The notes below the pieces were generated by a model that was given only the letters and a program-made list of their open reading frames with translations, ran no database searches and was not told the DNA's origin. From positions 1 through 64,000 of the IMG/VR virus record IMGVR_UViG_3300027301_000003: a stretch of 64,000 nucleotides of DNA; one strand, given 5' to 3'. Position numbers and translations under genes: made by a program. Shown here piece after piece: positions 121 through 23,224 of the stretch. The DNA is from a virus. Each line of letters begins with the position of its first letter. Positions within the stretch are counted from its first letter, which is position 1.

Positions 121-342
121 TTATTGTTTTGAATAATCCCTTAGTGCTTTAATATATTCTCGCTTATTGGGTTTATTATCTATATTCCCTTTCCATGCTA
201 CGACAATAATACCATTTGATTTTGTACCCTGATATATTCCCTTATTATCTTTTGTACCCGCATATACATGTTGTCCGGGTTGAATATATCGGATTAATTC
301 ATTAGGGATATTCCAGATATTAAATGCTTGAATATATTTCAT
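121..342 (-). CDS. Hypothetical protein, 73 aa, AT-rich island
   Basis: The ORF starts at ATG 342 behind a clear GGAG site and is flanked by an intergenic repeat on its 3' side. The protein is rich in Lys, Ile, Asn and Tyr, has no membrane segment, and contains a central run of short beta-like stretches (GIIVVAWKG). I do not recognise a family. The good ribosome site and the regular gene-repeat-gene layout support it as real. Confidence 0.6.
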   Translation of the reverse strand: MKYIQAFNIWNIPNELIRYIQPGQHVYAGTKDNKGIYQGTKSNGIIVVAWKGNIDNKPNKREYIKALRDYSKQ

Positions 343-1652: not shown

Positions 1653-1782
1653 TTGTCCACACCACTAGTGCTAGTTGTCCACATTTTGACTCTTATATAA
1701 GACTGATAACCTGTGCATAAGTATGGCATGAATCCTGCTATCCTGTGCATAACTTTTCACCCTGTGGACAACCTGTGGACAA
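1653..1782. other. Cluster of six DnaA-box-like 9-mers (origin candidate)
   Basis: Two copies of TTGTCCACA read rightward (1653-1661 and 1675-1683). Two TTATGCACA (1712-1720 and 1744-1752) and two TTGTCCACA (1763-1771 and 1774-1782) read leftward. TTATGCACA fits the bacterial DnaA consensus TTATNCACA exactly and TTGTCCACA differs at one base. Six in 130 bp, next to AT-rich iterons, is the classic layout of a DnaA-dependent theta origin. A first CTTATATAAG copy lies inside the cluster at 1692-1701. Confidence 0.7.
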
Positions 1783-1802
1783 CTCAAATATATCAGTCTA
1801 TG

Positions 1803-1940
1803 CTTATATACGGATATTCTTATATAAGTCAACCCTTATATAAGTAAACGCTTATATAACCCTTCGCTTATATAATGAATTGCTTATATAAGTCAACCCT
1901 TATATAATTGTTCGCTTATATAAGTAAACGCTTATATAAT
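1803..1940. repeat. Iteron array, nine units at exact 16-bp spacing
   Basis: CTTATATAA starts at 1819, 1835, 1851, 1867, 1883, 1899, 1915 and 1931, with a diverged first unit (CTTATATACG) at 1803. The 9-10 bp core is palindromic (CTTATATAAG) and the 6-7 bp spacer varies between units. Strict phase with a very AT-rich core suggests an initiator-binding or unwinding element beside the DnaA boxes. Confidence 0.85.
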
Positions 1941-2079
1941 GACTGACTGATATATTTTGTGACTGTAGAGTCATAATTTGAACTCTCCGGTCACTTTACG
2001 ACTGAACCGTCTAGTTTCTGACTGAACGGTCTAGTCGGCGACTGAACGGTATAGTAAGTGACTGCTCGGTCGGCGCAGC
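1941..2079. repeat. Second iteron array, ~20-bp period, consensus GACTGAACGGTCTAGT
   Basis: Units begin at 1941, 1961, 1980, 2000, 2020, 2040 and 2060. The three at 2000-2059 are best conserved and the outer ones degenerate. Spacing is 20 bp except for one 19-bp step. The unit contains a partly symmetric ACNG..CGGT. It directly abuts the 16-bp array but is unrelated in sequence, so it probably binds a different protein. Confidence 0.75.
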
Positions 2080-2117
2080 CGGATTAACTTTAGGTCTTTC
2101 GCTTGAGAATTACCAAG

Positions 2118-2188
2118 GCGGGTTTTTAGAAAAATTAGGCAAGCGGGTTTTTGGGTAAAAATTCCAAGTAAACCTAAAAGCGGGTTTT
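2118..2188. repeat. Triplicate GCGGGTTTT direct repeats
   Basis: GCGGGTTTT occurs at 2118, 2143 and 2180, each followed by an A-rich run. No gene is present between the second iteron array and the terminator at 2201. The role is unknown; the copies may be protein-binding sites or decayed terminators. Confidence 0.45.
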
Positions 2189-2200
2189 CAAAATAAAAAG

Positions 2201-2232
2201 CAAAAAAAAAACCCGAGAAATTAATCTCGGGT
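2201..2232 (-). terminator. Terminator ending the leftward early operon
   Basis: On the minus strand an 8-bp perfect stem ACCCGAGA/TCTCGGGT with a 6-nt loop is followed by nine T. It lies just 3' of the last early gene (2255-2677) and insulates the origin-like region from the operon. Confidence 0.93.
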
Positions 2233-8913: not shown

Positions 8914-9377
8914 AGTGATTGAAAATATTTACCAAATAATTCACAACCTTTTTGTATGCGCTCGTGGTGTGCGTTAAGACCTTGCATATCAACTTTCATA
9001 GCATTGACCTGTTCCATTACACCCTTAGTTTCATCAACTTCAGAACAATCATAGAATTGATCGTCAGTGTTATCAGAGCAAAGTTGCTGCATACTCCAAA
9101 TCATTTCATCCAGTGCATAATCCCATCGTGGATACCAATTATCATCAATGTCCCATTCGTTTTTTGTAGGTGCTGCTGCAGTAGTACGTAAATGTTCAGG
9201 AACATCTATATCATCTACATTAGGTGCTCCCTGCTTATCTTCCTTCATTTTCTGCAGCAATGGTACAATAATCAGCGCCAGCGTATGGTCAGCACTCCAA
9301 GTATCCCAAGGATCAATCTTGACGCTAATCTTGCGTTCTTTATCACCCTTTGGATAACGTCCGATATTTACTTTCAT
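8904..9377 (-). CDS. Hypothetical protein, 157 aa
   Basis: ATG 9377 follows AAGGAGTAAAT. The N-terminal part (MKVNIGRYPKGDKERKISVKIDPWDTWSADHTLALIIVPLL) and a later DNWYPRWDYALDEMIWSMQQL segment match a recurrent phage family of unknown role that begins IxIGPYPkgdkeRkv and contains DTWSmDhTLA. No catalytic motif is seen. Confidence 0.75.
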   Translation of the reverse strand: MKVNIGRYPKGDKERKISVKIDPWDTWSADHTLALIIVPLLQKMKEDKQGAPNVDDIDVPEHLRTTAAAPTKNEWDIDDNWYPRWDYALDEMIWSMQQLCSDNTDDQFYDCSEVDETKGVMEQVNAMKVDMQGLNAHHERIQKGCELFGKYFQSLWS

Positions 9378-9379
9378 AT

Positions 9380-9829
9380 TTACTCCTTCGCTCTTACAAC
9401 GGGTTTATCACCACCAAATAATGAATAGTGCTCACGAATAACTTCCAGTTTACCTTCTCTGTGCATACTTTCAATATTCACCAGCAAGAACAGATATTGT
9501 AGCATAGAAGTTAGACTATCGGGGTCAACCTCTAGTTCACCTTCTCCTAAAGCTAAGATAAAGCACAACAGGCATAAACTCTGCAAGTCTTCTTCTGCTT
9601 GCTGCGACAATACATTGAACTGCTTGAAATTAGCCGTATGAATGTACTCCAGAGCACTTGTCATTTCATAGATTTCAACGTCATCTAGTTTTTCAAAGTA
9701 CTCACCAGCAGGTAGAAACCCTGAGTGCTTTACTTCAAAAGCAGCTTTGAGTACCCAATTGGGAAGTTTCTTATTGCCAAGAATCTTATCAATACTAATG
9801 AGTCGAAAGTTTTTAACTGCTTCGTTCAA
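9380..9829 (-). CDS. Hypothetical protein, 149 aa, TTG start
   Basis: The start is TTG 9829, overlapping the previous stop (TTGA) with AGAGG seven bases upstream. The first half is mixed and the second half helical, with an acidic Leu-rich region (LQSLCLLCFILALGEGELEVDPD). The layout suggests a small regulatory or scaffold protein, but no family is recognised. Confidence 0.65.
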   Translation of the reverse strand: MNEAVKNFRLISIDKILGNKKLPNWVLKAAFEVKHSGFLPAGEYFEKLDDVEIYEMTSALEYIHTANFKQFNVLSQQAEEDLQSLCLLCFILALGEGELEVDPDSLTSMLQYLFLLVNIESMHREGKLEVIREHYSLFGGDKPVVRAKE

Positions 9830-9975
9830 AGCATTGCCTCTTCATAGTCATCTGTAGAAAATACATCTTTAGTATTGTACTGTTTGGAATCCATCAGTTC
9901 TTGTGAAGCTTCTGTTCTTGCACCATTGACAGTAGGGAAAGGCCAAACAACTTTTTCATTCTGTTGGTTCTGCAT
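9826..9975 (-). CDS. Small acidic protein, 49 aa
   Basis: ATG 9975 follows AAAGGAACACT. It is hydrophilic and rich in Gln, Asp and Thr (VVWPFPTVNGARTEASQEL). Its start lies within the 3' end of the HU-like gene and its stop overlaps the next gene's TTG, so the three are coupled. Confidence 0.6.
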   Translation of the reverse strand: MQNQQNEKVVWPFPTVNGARTEASQELMDSKQYNTKDVFSTDDYEEAML

Positions 9976-10273
9976 AGTGTTCCTTTAAATGCTGTTGAAG
10001 TATACTGTCGGTTGCAACTGACAACCTGAACGCAGTATAGCACAACTTTTCACCTTCTGTATTGAACATGCGTGAAATTTTCATCTGTTTCACTTTCATT
10101 GTTCCAAGACCTCGAAGCTTTACATCCGTACCTTCAGCAAGTAATACCTGAATATTACCCACTAAGTGATTCAGCACATCTTCTACTTCGTATTGATAGT
10201 AGCCAGAGGACTTAGCTACCATTTCAATCAGTTGTTTGTACTTTTTTGACTTACGTTTTTGTTTATCACCCAA
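9956..10273 (-). CDS. HU/IHF-family DNA-binding protein, 105 aa
   Basis: After a very basic N-terminus (KQKRKSKKYKQLIEMVAK) the sequence follows the HU/IHF plan: two helices (YYQYEVEDVLNHLVGNIQVLL) then the GTDVKLRGLGTMKVKQM beta segment that matches the family signature. The DNA-gripping arm is short. HU-like proteins bend and compact DNA; here it may act at the iteron-rich origin or in early transcription. It overlaps the upstream gene by 46 bases. Confidence 0.8.
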   Translation of the reverse strand: MGDKQKRKSKKYKQLIEMVAKSSGYYQYEVEDVLNHLVGNIQVLLAEGTDVKLRGLGTMKVKQMKISRMFNTEGEKLCYTAFRLSVATDSILQQHLKEHYAEPTE

Positions 10274-19240: not shown

Positions 19241-20971
19241 ATGGCAGCATTCATCAAGCATACAAATTGCGATAAGTGCGGTAGCTCAGATGGTAAGGCA
19301 GTATACGAAGGTGGCTCTTCGCACTGCTTTGTCTGTGAACATACAGTACCGTCTAGTGAATTCAAGGAGTTAAATCCCAAGAAGACAACCAAAGTAAGAT
19401 CAACAGCAAAGGAAGAAAAGAGTATGGAAGTTAAACCAAGTGGTAAACCTGCAATGACACCAGATGAAAATGCAGAGATTAAATCCGTAACTGGTGTAGC
19501 TGGTAAGGGTTTCCGTGGATTAAAAGATGAAACTACAAAACCCTTTGGTGTACGGTATGCGTATGATGATGATGGTGAAGTTGAAGAGCAGTACTACCCA
19601 ACTACACAAGATGGTCAAATCGTAGGATACAAAATCCGTGAAGTACCAAAGAACTTTTACTCCAAAGGCAGAACTGGTGCTGACTGCGAATTGTTTATGC
19701 AGTTTAAGTTTAACCGTGGTGGTAAATACATTCTAATCACTGAAGGTGAACTTGATGCTCTATCTGCGTATCAGATGTTTGCTGAGTACACTAAAGCTCG
19801 TAGCGGCGATTATGAGATGGCTGTAGTATCACCAACTACTGGTGCTAACTCACATAAACAAATTGCTGCTCAGTATCGCTTCTTTGATAGCTTTGATAAT
19901 ATTATCGTTTGCTATGATAATGATAAAGCTGGTAAGGAAGCAACTGAAGATATAGTCAAGGCTTTGCCAAAGGGTAAAGTTAAAGTCATGCACATGCGAT
20001 ATAAAGACCCTAACACCTATCTTGAAGAAGGTAAACAGGATGAGTTTATTCGTAACTTCTATGAAGCTAAACGCTATACTCCAGTTGGTGTATTAGGTAG
20101 TGGTGATTTGTATGATAAAATCCTAGAGCAAGCTACAGTACCAAAAGTACCGTTTCCACCATTCATGAATACATTGAATGAAATGCTTGTAGGTGGCTTA
20201 CCACTAGGACACATCATTAACGTTGCTGCAGGTACAGGTCTTGGTAAAACATCCTTTGTTAACGAAATGATTTATCACTGGATTTTCAACTCACCGCACA
20301 AAATCGGTATTGTTTCAATGGAATTAGATTCAGGTCAATACGGTGAGACACTACTAGGTAGACACCTCAGTCGTAAGATTTCGTTGATTCAAGATGATAC
20401 CGCTAAGAAAGATTTACTGGAGTCTGATCGTGTGCGTGAAAAGGCAAATGAGCTATTCTATAACTCTGATGGTCAACATCGTTTCTATCTACTCGATAAC
20501 CGTGATGGTACAATCGAAGAGATTCAAGATACAGTAGAAGAGCTTGTGGTATCATGCGGTTGCAGAATCATTGTGCTGGACCCCTTACAGGATATCCTTG
20601 ATGGTCTATCCAATGAAGACCAAGCATTGTTCATGAAGTGGTCCAAGGGTATCATCAAGAGTCATAACGTAACGCTGATCTTTATCAATCACGTTCGTAA
20701 GTCAGCTTCTGGTGTACAGAATTCTTCACAAGGTGGTGCATTCACTGAAGAGGAAATTCAAGGTAGTTCTACTATCATTAAGTCAGCTTCAGCTAACATT
20801 TTGTTAAGTCGAAATAAGTACGCAGAAGACCCAACTGAACGCAATACAACCAAAGTTGTACTAAGTAAGAATCGTATCTGTGGATTAACTGGCCCTGCTG
20901 GTAACGTCTACTATGACAACGACACTCATACTTTGCATAACTTAGATGATTGGTTGAACAACAACAATTAA
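19241..20971 (+). CDS. Primase-helicase, T7 gp4-like, 576 aa
   Basis: An N-terminal zinc finger (CDKCGSSDGKAVYEGG..CFVCEH, ~9-36) is followed by a TOPRIM domain (ILITEGELDALSA; IIVCYDNDKAGKEA) and a DnaB-like RecA core with Walker A AAGTGLGKTSF and Walker B IIVLDPLQDI. This fused layout is the T7 gp4 type, which unwinds DNA and makes primers at the fork. The gene ends at a terminator preceding the polymerase. Confidence 0.95.
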   Translation: MAAFIKHTNCDKCGSSDGKAVYEGGSSHCFVCEHTVPSSEFKELNPKKTTKVRSTAKEEKSMEVKPSGKPAMTPDENAEIKSVTGVAGKGFRGLKDETTKPFGVRYAYDDDGEVEEQYYPTTQDGQIVGYKIREVPKNFYSKGRTGADCELFMQFKFNRGGKYILITEGELDALSAYQMFAEYTKARSGDYEMAVVSPTTGANSHKQIAAQYRFFDSFDNIIVCYDNDKAGKEATEDIVKALPKGKVKVMHMRYKDPNTYLEEGKQDEFIRNFYEAKRYTPVGVLGSGDLYDKILEQATVPKVPFPPFMNTLNEMLVGGLPLGHIINVAAGTGLGKTSFVNEMIYHWIFNSPHKIGIVSMELDSGQYGETLLGRHLSRKISLIQDDTAKKDLLESDRVREKANELFYNSDGQHRFYLLDNRDGTIEEIQDTVEELVVSCGCRIIVLDPLQDILDGLSNEDQALFMKWSKGIIKSHNVTLIFINHVRKSASGVQNSSQGGAFTEEEIQGSSTIIKSASANILLSRNKYAEDPTERNTTKVVLSKNRICGLTGPAGNVYYDNDTHTLHNLDDWLNNNN

Positions 20972-21031: not shown

Positions 21032-23224
21032 ATGGATTTGACAAGAGACTGGATTTATGACATTGAAACGTACAAGTCAGCTTTTACGTTCGCTGTTGTT
21101 CGTGCAGACGGTAAACACGCACGAGTATTTGAGGTTTCCAGCCGTACTAATGAGCTAGAGCGCATCTATGCTTGCGTTGACCATATTGAAGCCTCTACTG
21201 GTCGTTTGGTGGGTTTCAACAACGTAGGATTCGACTATCCTATCTTGCATGAAGTTCTTTTGAATCGCAGTCGTTGGTTGGCTAAATCAGGTAAGCAAGT
21301 TGCTGCTGATGTACACAAGCTTGCACAAAAGCAGATTGACTCCTTCAAGGATAATGGTTTCGGTAATAGCATTAAGACTGAAGAGCAAATTGTTCCTCAA
21401 GTTGACCTCTATCGTATCCATCACTTCAATAACAAAGCACGAGCCACTGGTCTAAAGATGCTGGAATTCAACATGCGTATGGATAACATCGAAGACTTAC
21501 CTTATGCTGTGGATGCAGAACTAACCGCAGAAGAAATTGACAAACTTAAAAGCTATAACATGCATGATGTGCGCTGTACTCTTGCGTTTTACTTGAAGTC
21601 CATTGCTCAGATTGAATTCAGGGATAACTTGAGTATCAAACTTGGTCGTGACTTTACCAATGCTGACGATACAAAAATTGGTGCTGAGTTCTTTCAGATG
21701 AAGCTTGAGGAATCAGGTGTAAAGCTGCATAAGTTCAAAGACGGTAAGAAAGTCATGATGCAAACCAAGAGAGACAAGATCGCTATTAAAGACTGTCTGT
21801 TTGGTTATTACAAGTTTGATCGTCCAGAGTTTCAAGCAGTTTATGATTGGTTTTCTAAGCAGATCATCACTGAGACTAAAGGCGTGTTCTCAGATATTGA
21901 AGAGCACAATCTTGGTGAAGTTGCTAAGTACGCAAACCTTACTCTAAAGCGCAAGAAGTTCAAAGGTGCTCCAACTGAACGAGAAGTTGATGATTTCAAG
22001 AATGAACATCCAATGGGTTGGATCGAAGTAGAAGAGCTTAAGGCTACTGAATATCTGTTTGATGCCAATGGTGAACATGTGCTTGAATACATACTGGATG
22101 CTGATGGTTGTCCAGACCTTGCAAAGAAGCGCAAGAAGGTCCGTGTAGCGAAGAAATCCTATTGGGGTTGCTACCGTATTGCTGAGACTCTAAATGTCCT
22201 TGTAGATGGCTATAGGATTGATTTTGGAGTAGGTGGTGTACATGCATCTCTATCTGAGAAGGTTGCTAGTGCAGGTAAGCTGTACATGCTAAGGGACGCT
22301 GACGTAAGTTCAATGTATCCTAACATTGCTATTTCAAATAAGATTTATCCTGAGCATCTTGGTGCAGAGTTCTGTGCAATTTATCAAGACATGTATGAGC
22401 AGCGTAAATCCTATGCAAAGAATACACCTGAGAATGCAATGCTTAAACTTGCACTCAACGGTACATACGGTAAGAGCAATGATAAATACTCTGTGTTCTA
22501 TGATCCAAAGTTTACAATGTCGATTACCATCAACGGTCAATTGTCTTTGCTAATGCTTGCTGATCGTTTACTGCAGATTCCAAAGCTAAAGTTAGTCCAA
22601 CTAAATACAGACGGTTTGACTGTAGCTATGACACGAGATACTGAAGAGCAGTACAATGCAATCTGTTTGCAATGGCAAAAGGATGTAAAGCTTGACTTGG
22701 AATTCGTAGATTATCAGAACATGTATATTCGTGATGTGAATAACTACATTGCTTTGTACACAAATGGTAAGGTAAAGCGCAAAGGTGCTTATCAGTACGA
22801 AGATTTAGGTTGGCATCAAAACCAAGGTGGTCTAGTGATTCCAATGGCTGCTGAAGCTGCTATGTTGCATGGTAAGGATGTACGAGAGTTCATTCAGGAA
22901 AGACTTGATCAAGGTCATATCTTTGATTTCATGCTGCGTACAAAAGTCCCTCGCAGTTCTAAACTTGTGCTAGAATTTGAAGATGGTCGTGTAGAGCAAC
23001 AGCAGAACATCTGTAGATACTACCCTTGTAAAACTGGTGGTAAACTAATGAAGTTGATGCCAGCACTACCAGATAGCGAAGACAAGAGCGATAGAAGAAT
23101 GGGTATTGACACATCTTGGAATGTAAAGACCTGCAATAACATCGCTGATTTCGGTTATGATGTAGACTTGGATTACTATGTAAGTGAAGCTGAGAAGCTA
23201 GTTATCAGAAAGGACAAAGCATGA
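21032..23224 (+). CDS. DNA polymerase, family B-like with 3'-5' exonuclease, 730 aa
   Basis: The N-terminus carries a DnaQ-type exonuclease (WIYDIETYKS, D10/E12; VGFNNVGFDYPIL). The polymerase part shows family-B-like motif A DVSSMYPN (~D424), motif B LALNGTYGKSN (~N476) and motif C LNTDGLTV (~D527). Motif C has Asn where DTD is usual, though the second Asp remains. It is shorter than cellular PolB and lacks protein-priming insertions I can identify. With the T7-like primase-helicase and SSB it forms the phage replisome. Confidence 0.85.
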   Translation: MDLTRDWIYDIETYKSAFTFAVVRADGKHARVFEVSSRTNELERIYACVDHIEASTGRLVGFNNVGFDYPILHEVLLNRSRWLAKSGKQVAADVHKLAQKQIDSFKDNGFGNSIKTEEQIVPQVDLYRIHHFNNKARATGLKMLEFNMRMDNIEDLPYAVDAELTAEEIDKLKSYNMHDVRCTLAFYLKSIAQIEFRDNLSIKLGRDFTNADDTKIGAEFFQMKLEESGVKLHKFKDGKKVMMQTKRDKIAIKDCLFGYYKFDRPEFQAVYDWFSKQIITETKGVFSDIEEHNLGEVAKYANLTLKRKKFKGAPTEREVDDFKNEHPMGWIEVEELKATEYLFDANGEHVLEYILDADGCPDLAKKRKKVRVAKKSYWGCYRIAETLNVLVDGYRIDFGVGGVHASLSEKVASAGKLYMLRDADVSSMYPNIAISNKIYPEHLGAEFCAIYQDMYEQRKSYAKNTPENAMLKLALNGTYGKSNDKYSVFYDPKFTMSITINGQLSLLMLADRLLQIPKLKLVQLNTDGLTVAMTRDTEEQYNAICLQWQKDVKLDLEFVDYQNMYIRDVNNYIALYTNGKVKRKGAYQYEDLGWHQNQGGLVIPMAAEAAMLHGKDVREFIQERLDQGHIFDFMLRTKVPRSSKLVLEFEDGRVEQQQNICRYYPCKTGGKLMKLMPALPDSEDKSDRRMGIDTSWNVKTCNNIADFGYDVDLDYYVSEAEKLVIRKDKA

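What the first reader, a model, noticed from the sequence alone, without database searches (positions are those of the whole stretch)
1653..2079. Plasmid-like origin with DnaA boxes and two different iteron arrays
Six DnaA-box-like 9-mers lie in 130 bp, followed by nine CTTATATAAG-type units at exactly 16-bp spacing and then seven units of an unrelated 20-bp repeat. This resembles an iteron-controlled theta origin far more than the terminal or nick-based origins of many siphophages. No Rep protein is obvious in the window, though an HU-like protein and many unknown small proteins are present. It raises the option of a plasmid-like prophage or replication state.
Basis: partly seen in the sequence, partly recalled or inferred. 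Interest (0 to 1): 0.75.

Follow-up and report, generated by a model that had tools for sequence, protein, structure and literature searches.

The report
Host-DnaA origin-like element in freshwater phages
A freshwater phage carries a cluster of binding sites for its host's replication starter protein around a short palindrome, a layout shared by at least 100 uncultured phage sequences and matched in part in phage T5, which suggests these lytic phages borrow the host's own start switch to begin copying (or to pace entry of) their DNA.

Summary
In detail: six DnaA boxes in 130 bp (1653-1782), nine CTTATATA units at exactly 16 bp (1803-1946) and seven ~20-bp units (1941-2071), far beyond chance. 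This dyad recurs in two isolates (Limnohabitans phage DC31, Curvibacter phage P26059A) and in about 100 distinct sites, nearly all from uncultured viral contigs, with gaps held to 7-9 bp. It joins phages that otherwise share little beyond a T7-type primase-helicase. One variant of its right half gave no hit in 84,980 bacterial and archaeal genomes. The 16-bp and 20-bp arrays are optional add-ons (about 8 and 12 of 100 sites). I read it as a phage replication origin driven by host DnaA (0.55). The 'plasmid-like prophage' idea is not supported: no Rep_3, ParA, integrase or DnaA gene was found, close relatives are reported lytic, and the phage encodes its own replisome. Unexpectedly, the annotated injection stop signal of T5 has the same palindrome/inverted-DnaA-box layout, so a role in DNA entry is the main rival. 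No read-depth, binding or cloning data exist here.

The parts
1653..1661 (+). DnaA box 1 (TTGTCCACA)
   Evidence: sequence; TTATCCACA in DC31; box1-box2 pitch 22 bp is the commonest pitch among 100 distinct sites
1675..1683 (+). DnaA box 2 (TTGTCCACA), 7 bp left of the palindrome
   Evidence: gap 7-9 bp wherever box 2 was found (92 of 100 sites; that gap range was partly imposed by the search pattern)
1691..1702 (.). core palindrome TCTTATATAAGA; exactly one per core-bearing genome
   Evidence: absent from KPP10, KIL1 and FelixO1
1712..1720 (-). DnaA box 3 (inverted, TTATGCACA), 9 bp right of the palindrome
   Evidence: gap 7-9 bp in 94 of 95 sites where box 3 was found
1744..1752 (-). DnaA box 4 (TTATGCACA)
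1763..1771 (-). DnaA box 5 (TTGTCCACA)
1774..1782 (-). DnaA box 6 (TTGTCCACA)
1803..1946 (.). nine CTTATATA(A)(G) units at 16-bp pitch; among the least stable 0.4% of 100-bp stretches in the window; candidate unwinding element and/or extra palindrome sites
   Evidence: optional in relatives
1941..2071 (+). seven ~20-bp units headed GACTG (half-palindrome GACTGAACGGTC), pitch 20,20,19,20,20,20
   Evidence: related 20-bp arrays in about 12 of 100 core sites
2117..2188 (+). three copies of [A/G]GCGGGTTTT; similar repeats lie at this place in close relatives (AAGCGGCTTTTC in L021, L022, L028, L029)
2211..2232 (-). intrinsic terminator ending the leftward operon upstream of the block
121..342 (-). 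73-aa protein of phrog_21585, the small gene most often near the core in both phage lineages (32 of 73 core loci versus 1 of 30 core-less TerL loci)
9956..10273 (-). HU/IHF-family protein (PF00216), present in all core-bearing genomes of the 75-84 kb group and not found in KPP10, KIL1 or FelixO1
19241..20971 (+). TOPRIM + DnaB_C primase-helicase (T7 gp4 type)
21032..23224 (+). DNA polymerase (phrog_1252)

Best explanation
A replication origin of a lytic phage that uses host DnaA as its initiator. Inferred mechanism: DnaA fills the box cluster. Boxes 2 and 3 face each other across the palindrome TCTTATATAAGA, which is bound by a second, unidentified sequence-specific protein or deformed by DnaA. 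The nucleoprotein complex, helped by HU (host or phage), opens the neighbouring AT-rich 16-bp array. The phage's own primase-helicase and polymerase then load, so host DnaB/DnaC are not needed. The 16-bp array doubles as weak extra copies of the palindrome; the 20-bp array is an accessory binding array. Shown here: sites, spacing, conservation, uniqueness, absence of Rep_3/ParA/integrase profiles, replisome genes, low duplex stability. Inferred: DnaA binding, unwinding, origin function.
For: Six DnaA boxes in 130 bp, conserved in DC31 through TTGTCCACA to TTATCCACA swaps. Dyad geometry in 100 distinct sites with gaps 7-9 bp on both sides. The left gap was partly set by the search pattern, but box 3 and box 1 were free in the set and the left boxes were free in the set. 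Exactly one TCTTATATAAGA in each of ten core-bearing genomes, and zero hits for one right-half variant in 84,980 bacterial and archaeal genomes. Dyad scan: one site each in the window, DC31 and P26059A, none in KPP10, KIL1 or FelixO1, none in 200 shuffles. The module joins phages that share few genes and whose primase-helicases are only about 30% identical; the window's DNA polymerase is not found in G009 or G015, yet the core stays. The 16-bp array is among the least stable 0.4% of the window (1.5% in DC31) and abuts the boxes. In a set chosen by terminase only, 14 of 46 loci have at least 3 boxes in 200 bp upstream, some with a different centre.
Against: No functional data. GC skew does not turn at the core in the window genome, DC31 or P26059A; its turns follow transcription direction. 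A T7-type replisome does not usually need DnaA. The same palindrome/DnaA layout in T5 lies in an element annotated as injection stop signal. No palindrome-binding protein identified. Most terminase relatives lack the palindrome (40 of 46), so it is not essential to that phage group.
Confidence: 0.55

Rival explanations
1. A DNA-entry control element like the T5 injection stop signal: host DnaA and a palindrome binder hold the incoming genome after the first segment, until early proteins release it.
For: T5's annotated iss (9140-10149) contains the one dyad found in its first 12 kb: TTATTCACT, 9 bp, TACTGTATAAATATACAGTA, 8 bp, TGGGGATAA. In seven T5-like phages the palindrome plus GATAACC plus DnaA box is nearly invariant. 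Direct repeats follow it, as here. The iss is described as repeats, palindromes and DnaA boxes in PMC13250531.
Against: No homologs of T5 A1, A2 or dmp. Two-step transfer is not reported for these phages. In a phage lineage with other structural genes the module sits upstream of the terminase genes. The iss mechanism itself is unproven, so the likeness may mean both are origins.
Confidence: 0.18
2. A DnaA sink or regulator (datA/DARS-like): the cluster titrates or resets DnaA to stop host initiation.
For: Dense, strictly spaced boxes including a head-to-head pair; DnaA-box clusters recur in many viral contigs with varied centres.
Against: Does not explain the invariant palindrome or the AT array; one site per genome is a small sink unless phage copy number is high.
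Confidence: 0.1
3. A packaging (pac/cos) or transcription-control site for the terminase operon.
For: In many relatives the core lies about 0.8-1.4 kb upstream of the terminase genes; CTTATATAAG arrays without DnaA boxes lie upstream of terL in other contigs.
Against: In DC31 the candidate terminase genes lie about 8 kb away; no good sigma70 promoter is centred on the dyad; DnaA boxes are unexplained.
Confidence: 0.08
4. A plasmid-type iteron origin or partition site of a plasmid prophage, with the 16-bp and 20-bp repeats as Rep or ParB iterons.
For: Array form and pitch; the arrays vary in sequence and copy number as iterons do.
Against: No Rep_3, ParA or integrase profile hit in seven core-bearing records; arrays absent from most core sites; no gene tracks the 16-bp array; lytic isolates.
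Confidence: 0.05

Closest known systems
Bacterial oriC / DnaA-dependent plasmid origins
   Same: Clustered DnaA boxes next to an AT-rich repeat array; HU available.
   Different: Phage-borne; the centre is an invariant palindrome between opposed boxes; the replisome that would load is the phage's own primase-helicase; one variant of the right half was absent from 84,980 genomes.
T5 injection stop signal (annotated 9140-10149)
   Same: Opposed DnaA-like boxes 8-9 bp either side of an AT-centred palindrome, followed by direct-repeat arrays; nearly the same right half GATAACCTGTGGATAA.
   Different: Different palindrome (ACTGTATA..TATACAGT); left box degenerate in several T5-like phages; no A1/A2 homologs here; lies in the T5 terminal repeat, while the ends are unknown here.
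Putative origin of Pseudomonas phage vB_PseuGesM_254 (PMC11512268)
   Same: Same phage superfamily; AT-rich tandem repeats called as origin by Ori-Finder.
   Different: No stringent DnaA box and no palindrome in that region by my scan; its repeats are TTTATATTAATAATT; it adjoins the primase region.
Iteron plasmid origins (Rep_3 type, RK2, P1 oriR)
   Same: Direct-repeat arrays plus DnaA boxes.
   Different: No Rep_3 gene; arrays dispensable.

Membership tests
DnaA-dependent replication origin | cluster of DnaA boxes beyond chance | tested here: met
   6 in 130 bp; at most 3 in 140 bp in 200 shuffles
DnaA-dependent replication origin | adjacent AT-rich, easily unwound element | tested here: met
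   16-bp array in the lowest 0.4% of duplex stability
DnaA-dependent replication origin | initiation at the site / DnaA binding | not testable with these tools
   needs read depth, footprinting, cloning
DnaA-dependent replication origin | GC-skew turn at the site | tested here: not met
   no turn in G000, DC31 or P26059A; skew follows gene direction, so weak evidence and not a strictly defining feature
Iteron plasmid origin | cognate Rep gene | tested here: not met
   no PF01051 in 7 core-bearing records; other Rep families not tested
Iteron plasmid origin | iterons required/conserved | tested here: not met
   16-bp array in 8 and 20-bp array in 12 of 100 core sites
Plasmid prophage (P1/N15-like) | partition and/or lysogeny genes | tested here: not met
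   no ParA-type AAA_31 or tyrosine integrase; isolates reported lytic
T5-type injection stop signal | DnaA boxes, palindromes and repeats together | tested here: met
   description in PMC13250531
T5-type injection stop signal | A1/A2 second-step-transfer genes | tested here: not met
   tblastn of A1, A2 and dmp: no credible hit
T5-type injection stop signal | location in terminal repeat; pause in DNA entry | not testable with these tools
   termini unknown for this phage

The most novel reading that the evidence does not exclude
The opposed-DnaA-box/palindrome dyad is one class of phage control element shared by freshwater phages and T5-like phages. In both it couples host DnaA to an early checkpoint, pausing DNA entry and then firing replication, so the unexplained T5 injection stop signal and these origins would be the same device.
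Probability: 0.15. Interest if true: 0.82.

Novelty: new variant of a known kind. Interest (0 to 1): 0.62.

Why it matters
DnaA-dependent origins are a hallmark of cells and plasmids; phages with their own T7-like replisome are not expected to rely on host DnaA. A fixed 12-bp palindrome between opposed DnaA boxes, spread over about 100 distinct phage loci, gives a simple marker for origins in uncultured phages, implies an undiscovered palindrome-binding factor, and ties in with the long-unexplained T5 injection stop signal. Two isolates with hosts (DC31, P26059A) make it testable. I found no earlier description in the papers searched, but the library holds only open-licence papers.

Tried and rejected
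Plasmid collection search with the DnaA block: only 20-21-bp chance matches. Core in bacterial genomes: none for one right-half variant. 16-bp arrays in bacterial genomes: five loci, all Bacillota; in the four whose flanking genes were compared the neighbour is arsR-arsB, so these arrays are probably unrelated operators. Terminase-linked CTTATATAAG arrays in other phages (L052, L055, L062, L070) lack DnaA boxes, so the array motif alone is not diagnostic. Search for a protein tracking the 16-bp array: none. phrog_21585 as the palindrome binder: linked (Fisher p 2e-5) but absent near 56% of core sites, so not the universal factor. Symmetric promoter reading of the dyad: TATAAG has G at the critical last -10 position and the promoter scan finds none there; rejected. 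Unbiased scan of opposed TTATCCACA pairs shows many other DnaA clusters without the palindrome, so the palindrome class is one subclass. Structure prediction was not used because no single candidate protein stood out.

Full report
WHAT IS THERE. The window is the first 64 kb of a 74,422-bp viral record. Its nearest isolate is Limnohabitans phage DC31 (about 85% nt identity); next is Curvibacter phage P26059A. Capsid and primase place it in the KPP10 / PAK / KIL superfamily. The region 1653-2079 lies in a 0.9-kb intergenic stretch between two leftward operons and is bounded on the right by a - strand terminator at 2232-2211. Shuffles never reach this density.

A tenth TTATATAA lies alone between boxes 2 and 3. 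Box 2, 7 bp, TCTTATATAAGA, 9 bp, inverted box 3 is almost unchanged in DC31, where the boxes switch between TTGTCCACA and TTATCCACA, both DnaA-type, and in P26059A, which has no arrays. The exact right half found 7 and then 16 viral contigs and no bacterial or archaeal genome among 84,980. After removal of near-duplicates there are 108 sites; 100 have flanking boxes and 8 do not, which gives the background. Among the 100, the left gap is 7-9 bp in all 92 with a detectable box 2, the right gap 7-9 bp in 94 of 95, and box 1 is most often 22 bp from box 2. The left gap in the set is partly imposed by the pattern; the right side was free there, and in the set the left side was free.

WHO CARRIES IT. 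Each of 18 records searched with the core pattern has exactly one copy, and each of ten core-bearing genomes has one TCTTATATAAGA, against none in KPP10, KIL1 or FelixO1. Many carriers are a different phage lineage with small and large terminase genes, portal, primase-helicase and T7-like polymerase; the core lies upstream of the terminase genes and on the other side of it run the replication genes. With the window they share a primase-helicase at about 30% identity, the 5'-3' exonuclease, ThyX, and in G010 ribonucleotide reductase. The window's polymerase is not found in G009 and G015 although the core is kept. So the element moves between replisomes and structural modules. Among 50,697 phage records only DC31 and P26059A match two consensus versions. 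In a sample chosen by terminase, not by motif, 14 of 46 loci have at least 3 DnaA boxes in 200 bp upstream and 6 have the palindrome; some others have DnaA clusters with another centre. Opposed TTATCCACA pairs are frequent in viral contigs generally, mostly without the palindrome.

THE ARRAYS ARE OPTIONAL. Of 100 core sites, 8 have a 16-bp CTTATA array and 12 a 20-bp GACTG array. Relatives show either, both, an 8-bp variant (L022) or none. No gene is present in all array-bearing complete relatives and absent from array-less ones. The 16-bp array is among the least stable stretches (lowest 0.4% of the window, 1.5% in DC31), fitting an unwinding element; that its unit copies the core palindrome, and that L080 and L170 carry tandem core-like palindromes at a wider pitch, argues that the palindrome is also a protein site.

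INTERPRETATION. An origin fired by host DnaA is the most economical reading. DnaA boxes are the constant; the genome has no DnaA; Rep_3, ParA-type and tyrosine integrase profiles are silent in seven records; an HU-family protein is conserved in the group; and the phage supplies helicase-primase, polymerase, exonuclease and ligase. DnaA binding and initiation are inferred. GC skew gives no support.

T5 LINK. A weak hit to Proteus phage PM135 led to T5. A generalized dyad scan (boxes with up to 1 mismatch, palindrome arm at least 6, gaps 7-9) finds one site in T5's first 12 kb, at 9391, inside the annotated injection stop signal, one each in the window, DC31 and P26059A, and none in 200 shuffles. 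In seven T5-like phages plus PM135, the palindrome's right arm, the spacer GATAACC and the inverted DnaA box are largely preserved; the left box is weaker and missing in several. The iss is described as repeats, palindromes and DnaA boxes with unknown mechanism (PMC13250531). This makes entry control the chief rival, or suggests both elements do the same thing. T5 A1, A2 and dmp have no relatives here.

VERDICT. Observation confirmed. Interpretation partly supported: origin likely, plasmid or prophage state not supported. New variant of a known kind; broad, precisely spaced, testable.

Noticed in passing
window 2117-2188: Three copies of [A/G]GCGGGTTTT (25- and 37-bp steps) follow the arrays; similar repeats (AAGCGGCTTTTC) sit at the same place in L021, L022, L028, L029 and L067. 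Function unknown.
   Followed up: partly
L003 17333-17373 and L029 about 10100: DC31 and another close relative carry a second, short CTTATATAA array (3 units, 16-bp pitch) a few kb from the core, in an intergenic region without a DnaA-box cluster.
   Followed up: partly
L050 9391-9445 (T5 AY543070): The annotated T5 injection stop signal contains an opposed DnaA-like-box/palindrome dyad whose palindrome and right box are conserved across T5-like phages.
   Followed up: yes
L052, L055, L062, L070: CTTATATAAG arrays at 16-bp pitch lie upstream of the terminase large subunit gene in contigs with no DnaA boxes nearby; possible packaging or operator sites.
   Followed up: partly
L074-L077: Three-unit CTTATATAA arrays at 16-bp pitch lie next to arsR-arsB in Fredinandcohnia and Sutcliffiella/Bacillus; probably ArsR operators unrelated to the phage element.
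   Followed up: partly
L232, L240, L254, L267: Terminase relatives without the palindrome carry a different DnaA cluster: TTATCCACA-GG-TTATCCACA-14 bp-TTATCCACA followed by a conserved TTAACATAATG segment.
   Followed up: partly
L006-L011, L212, L236, L244, L264: A G-run (GGGGGGGAGGG) recurs downstream of the origin-like region in the terminase-linked phage lineage.
   Followed up: no
window 121-342: phrog_21585 (73 aa, function unknown) lies within 1.6 kb of the core in 32 of 73 core loci and in only 1 of 30 core-less terminase loci.
   Followed up: partly
L386 1037-1428 (phage 254): The published Ori-Finder origin of Pseudomonas phage 254 is an array of about six TTTATATTAATAATT repeats; my scan finds no stringent DnaA box there.
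   Followed up: yes
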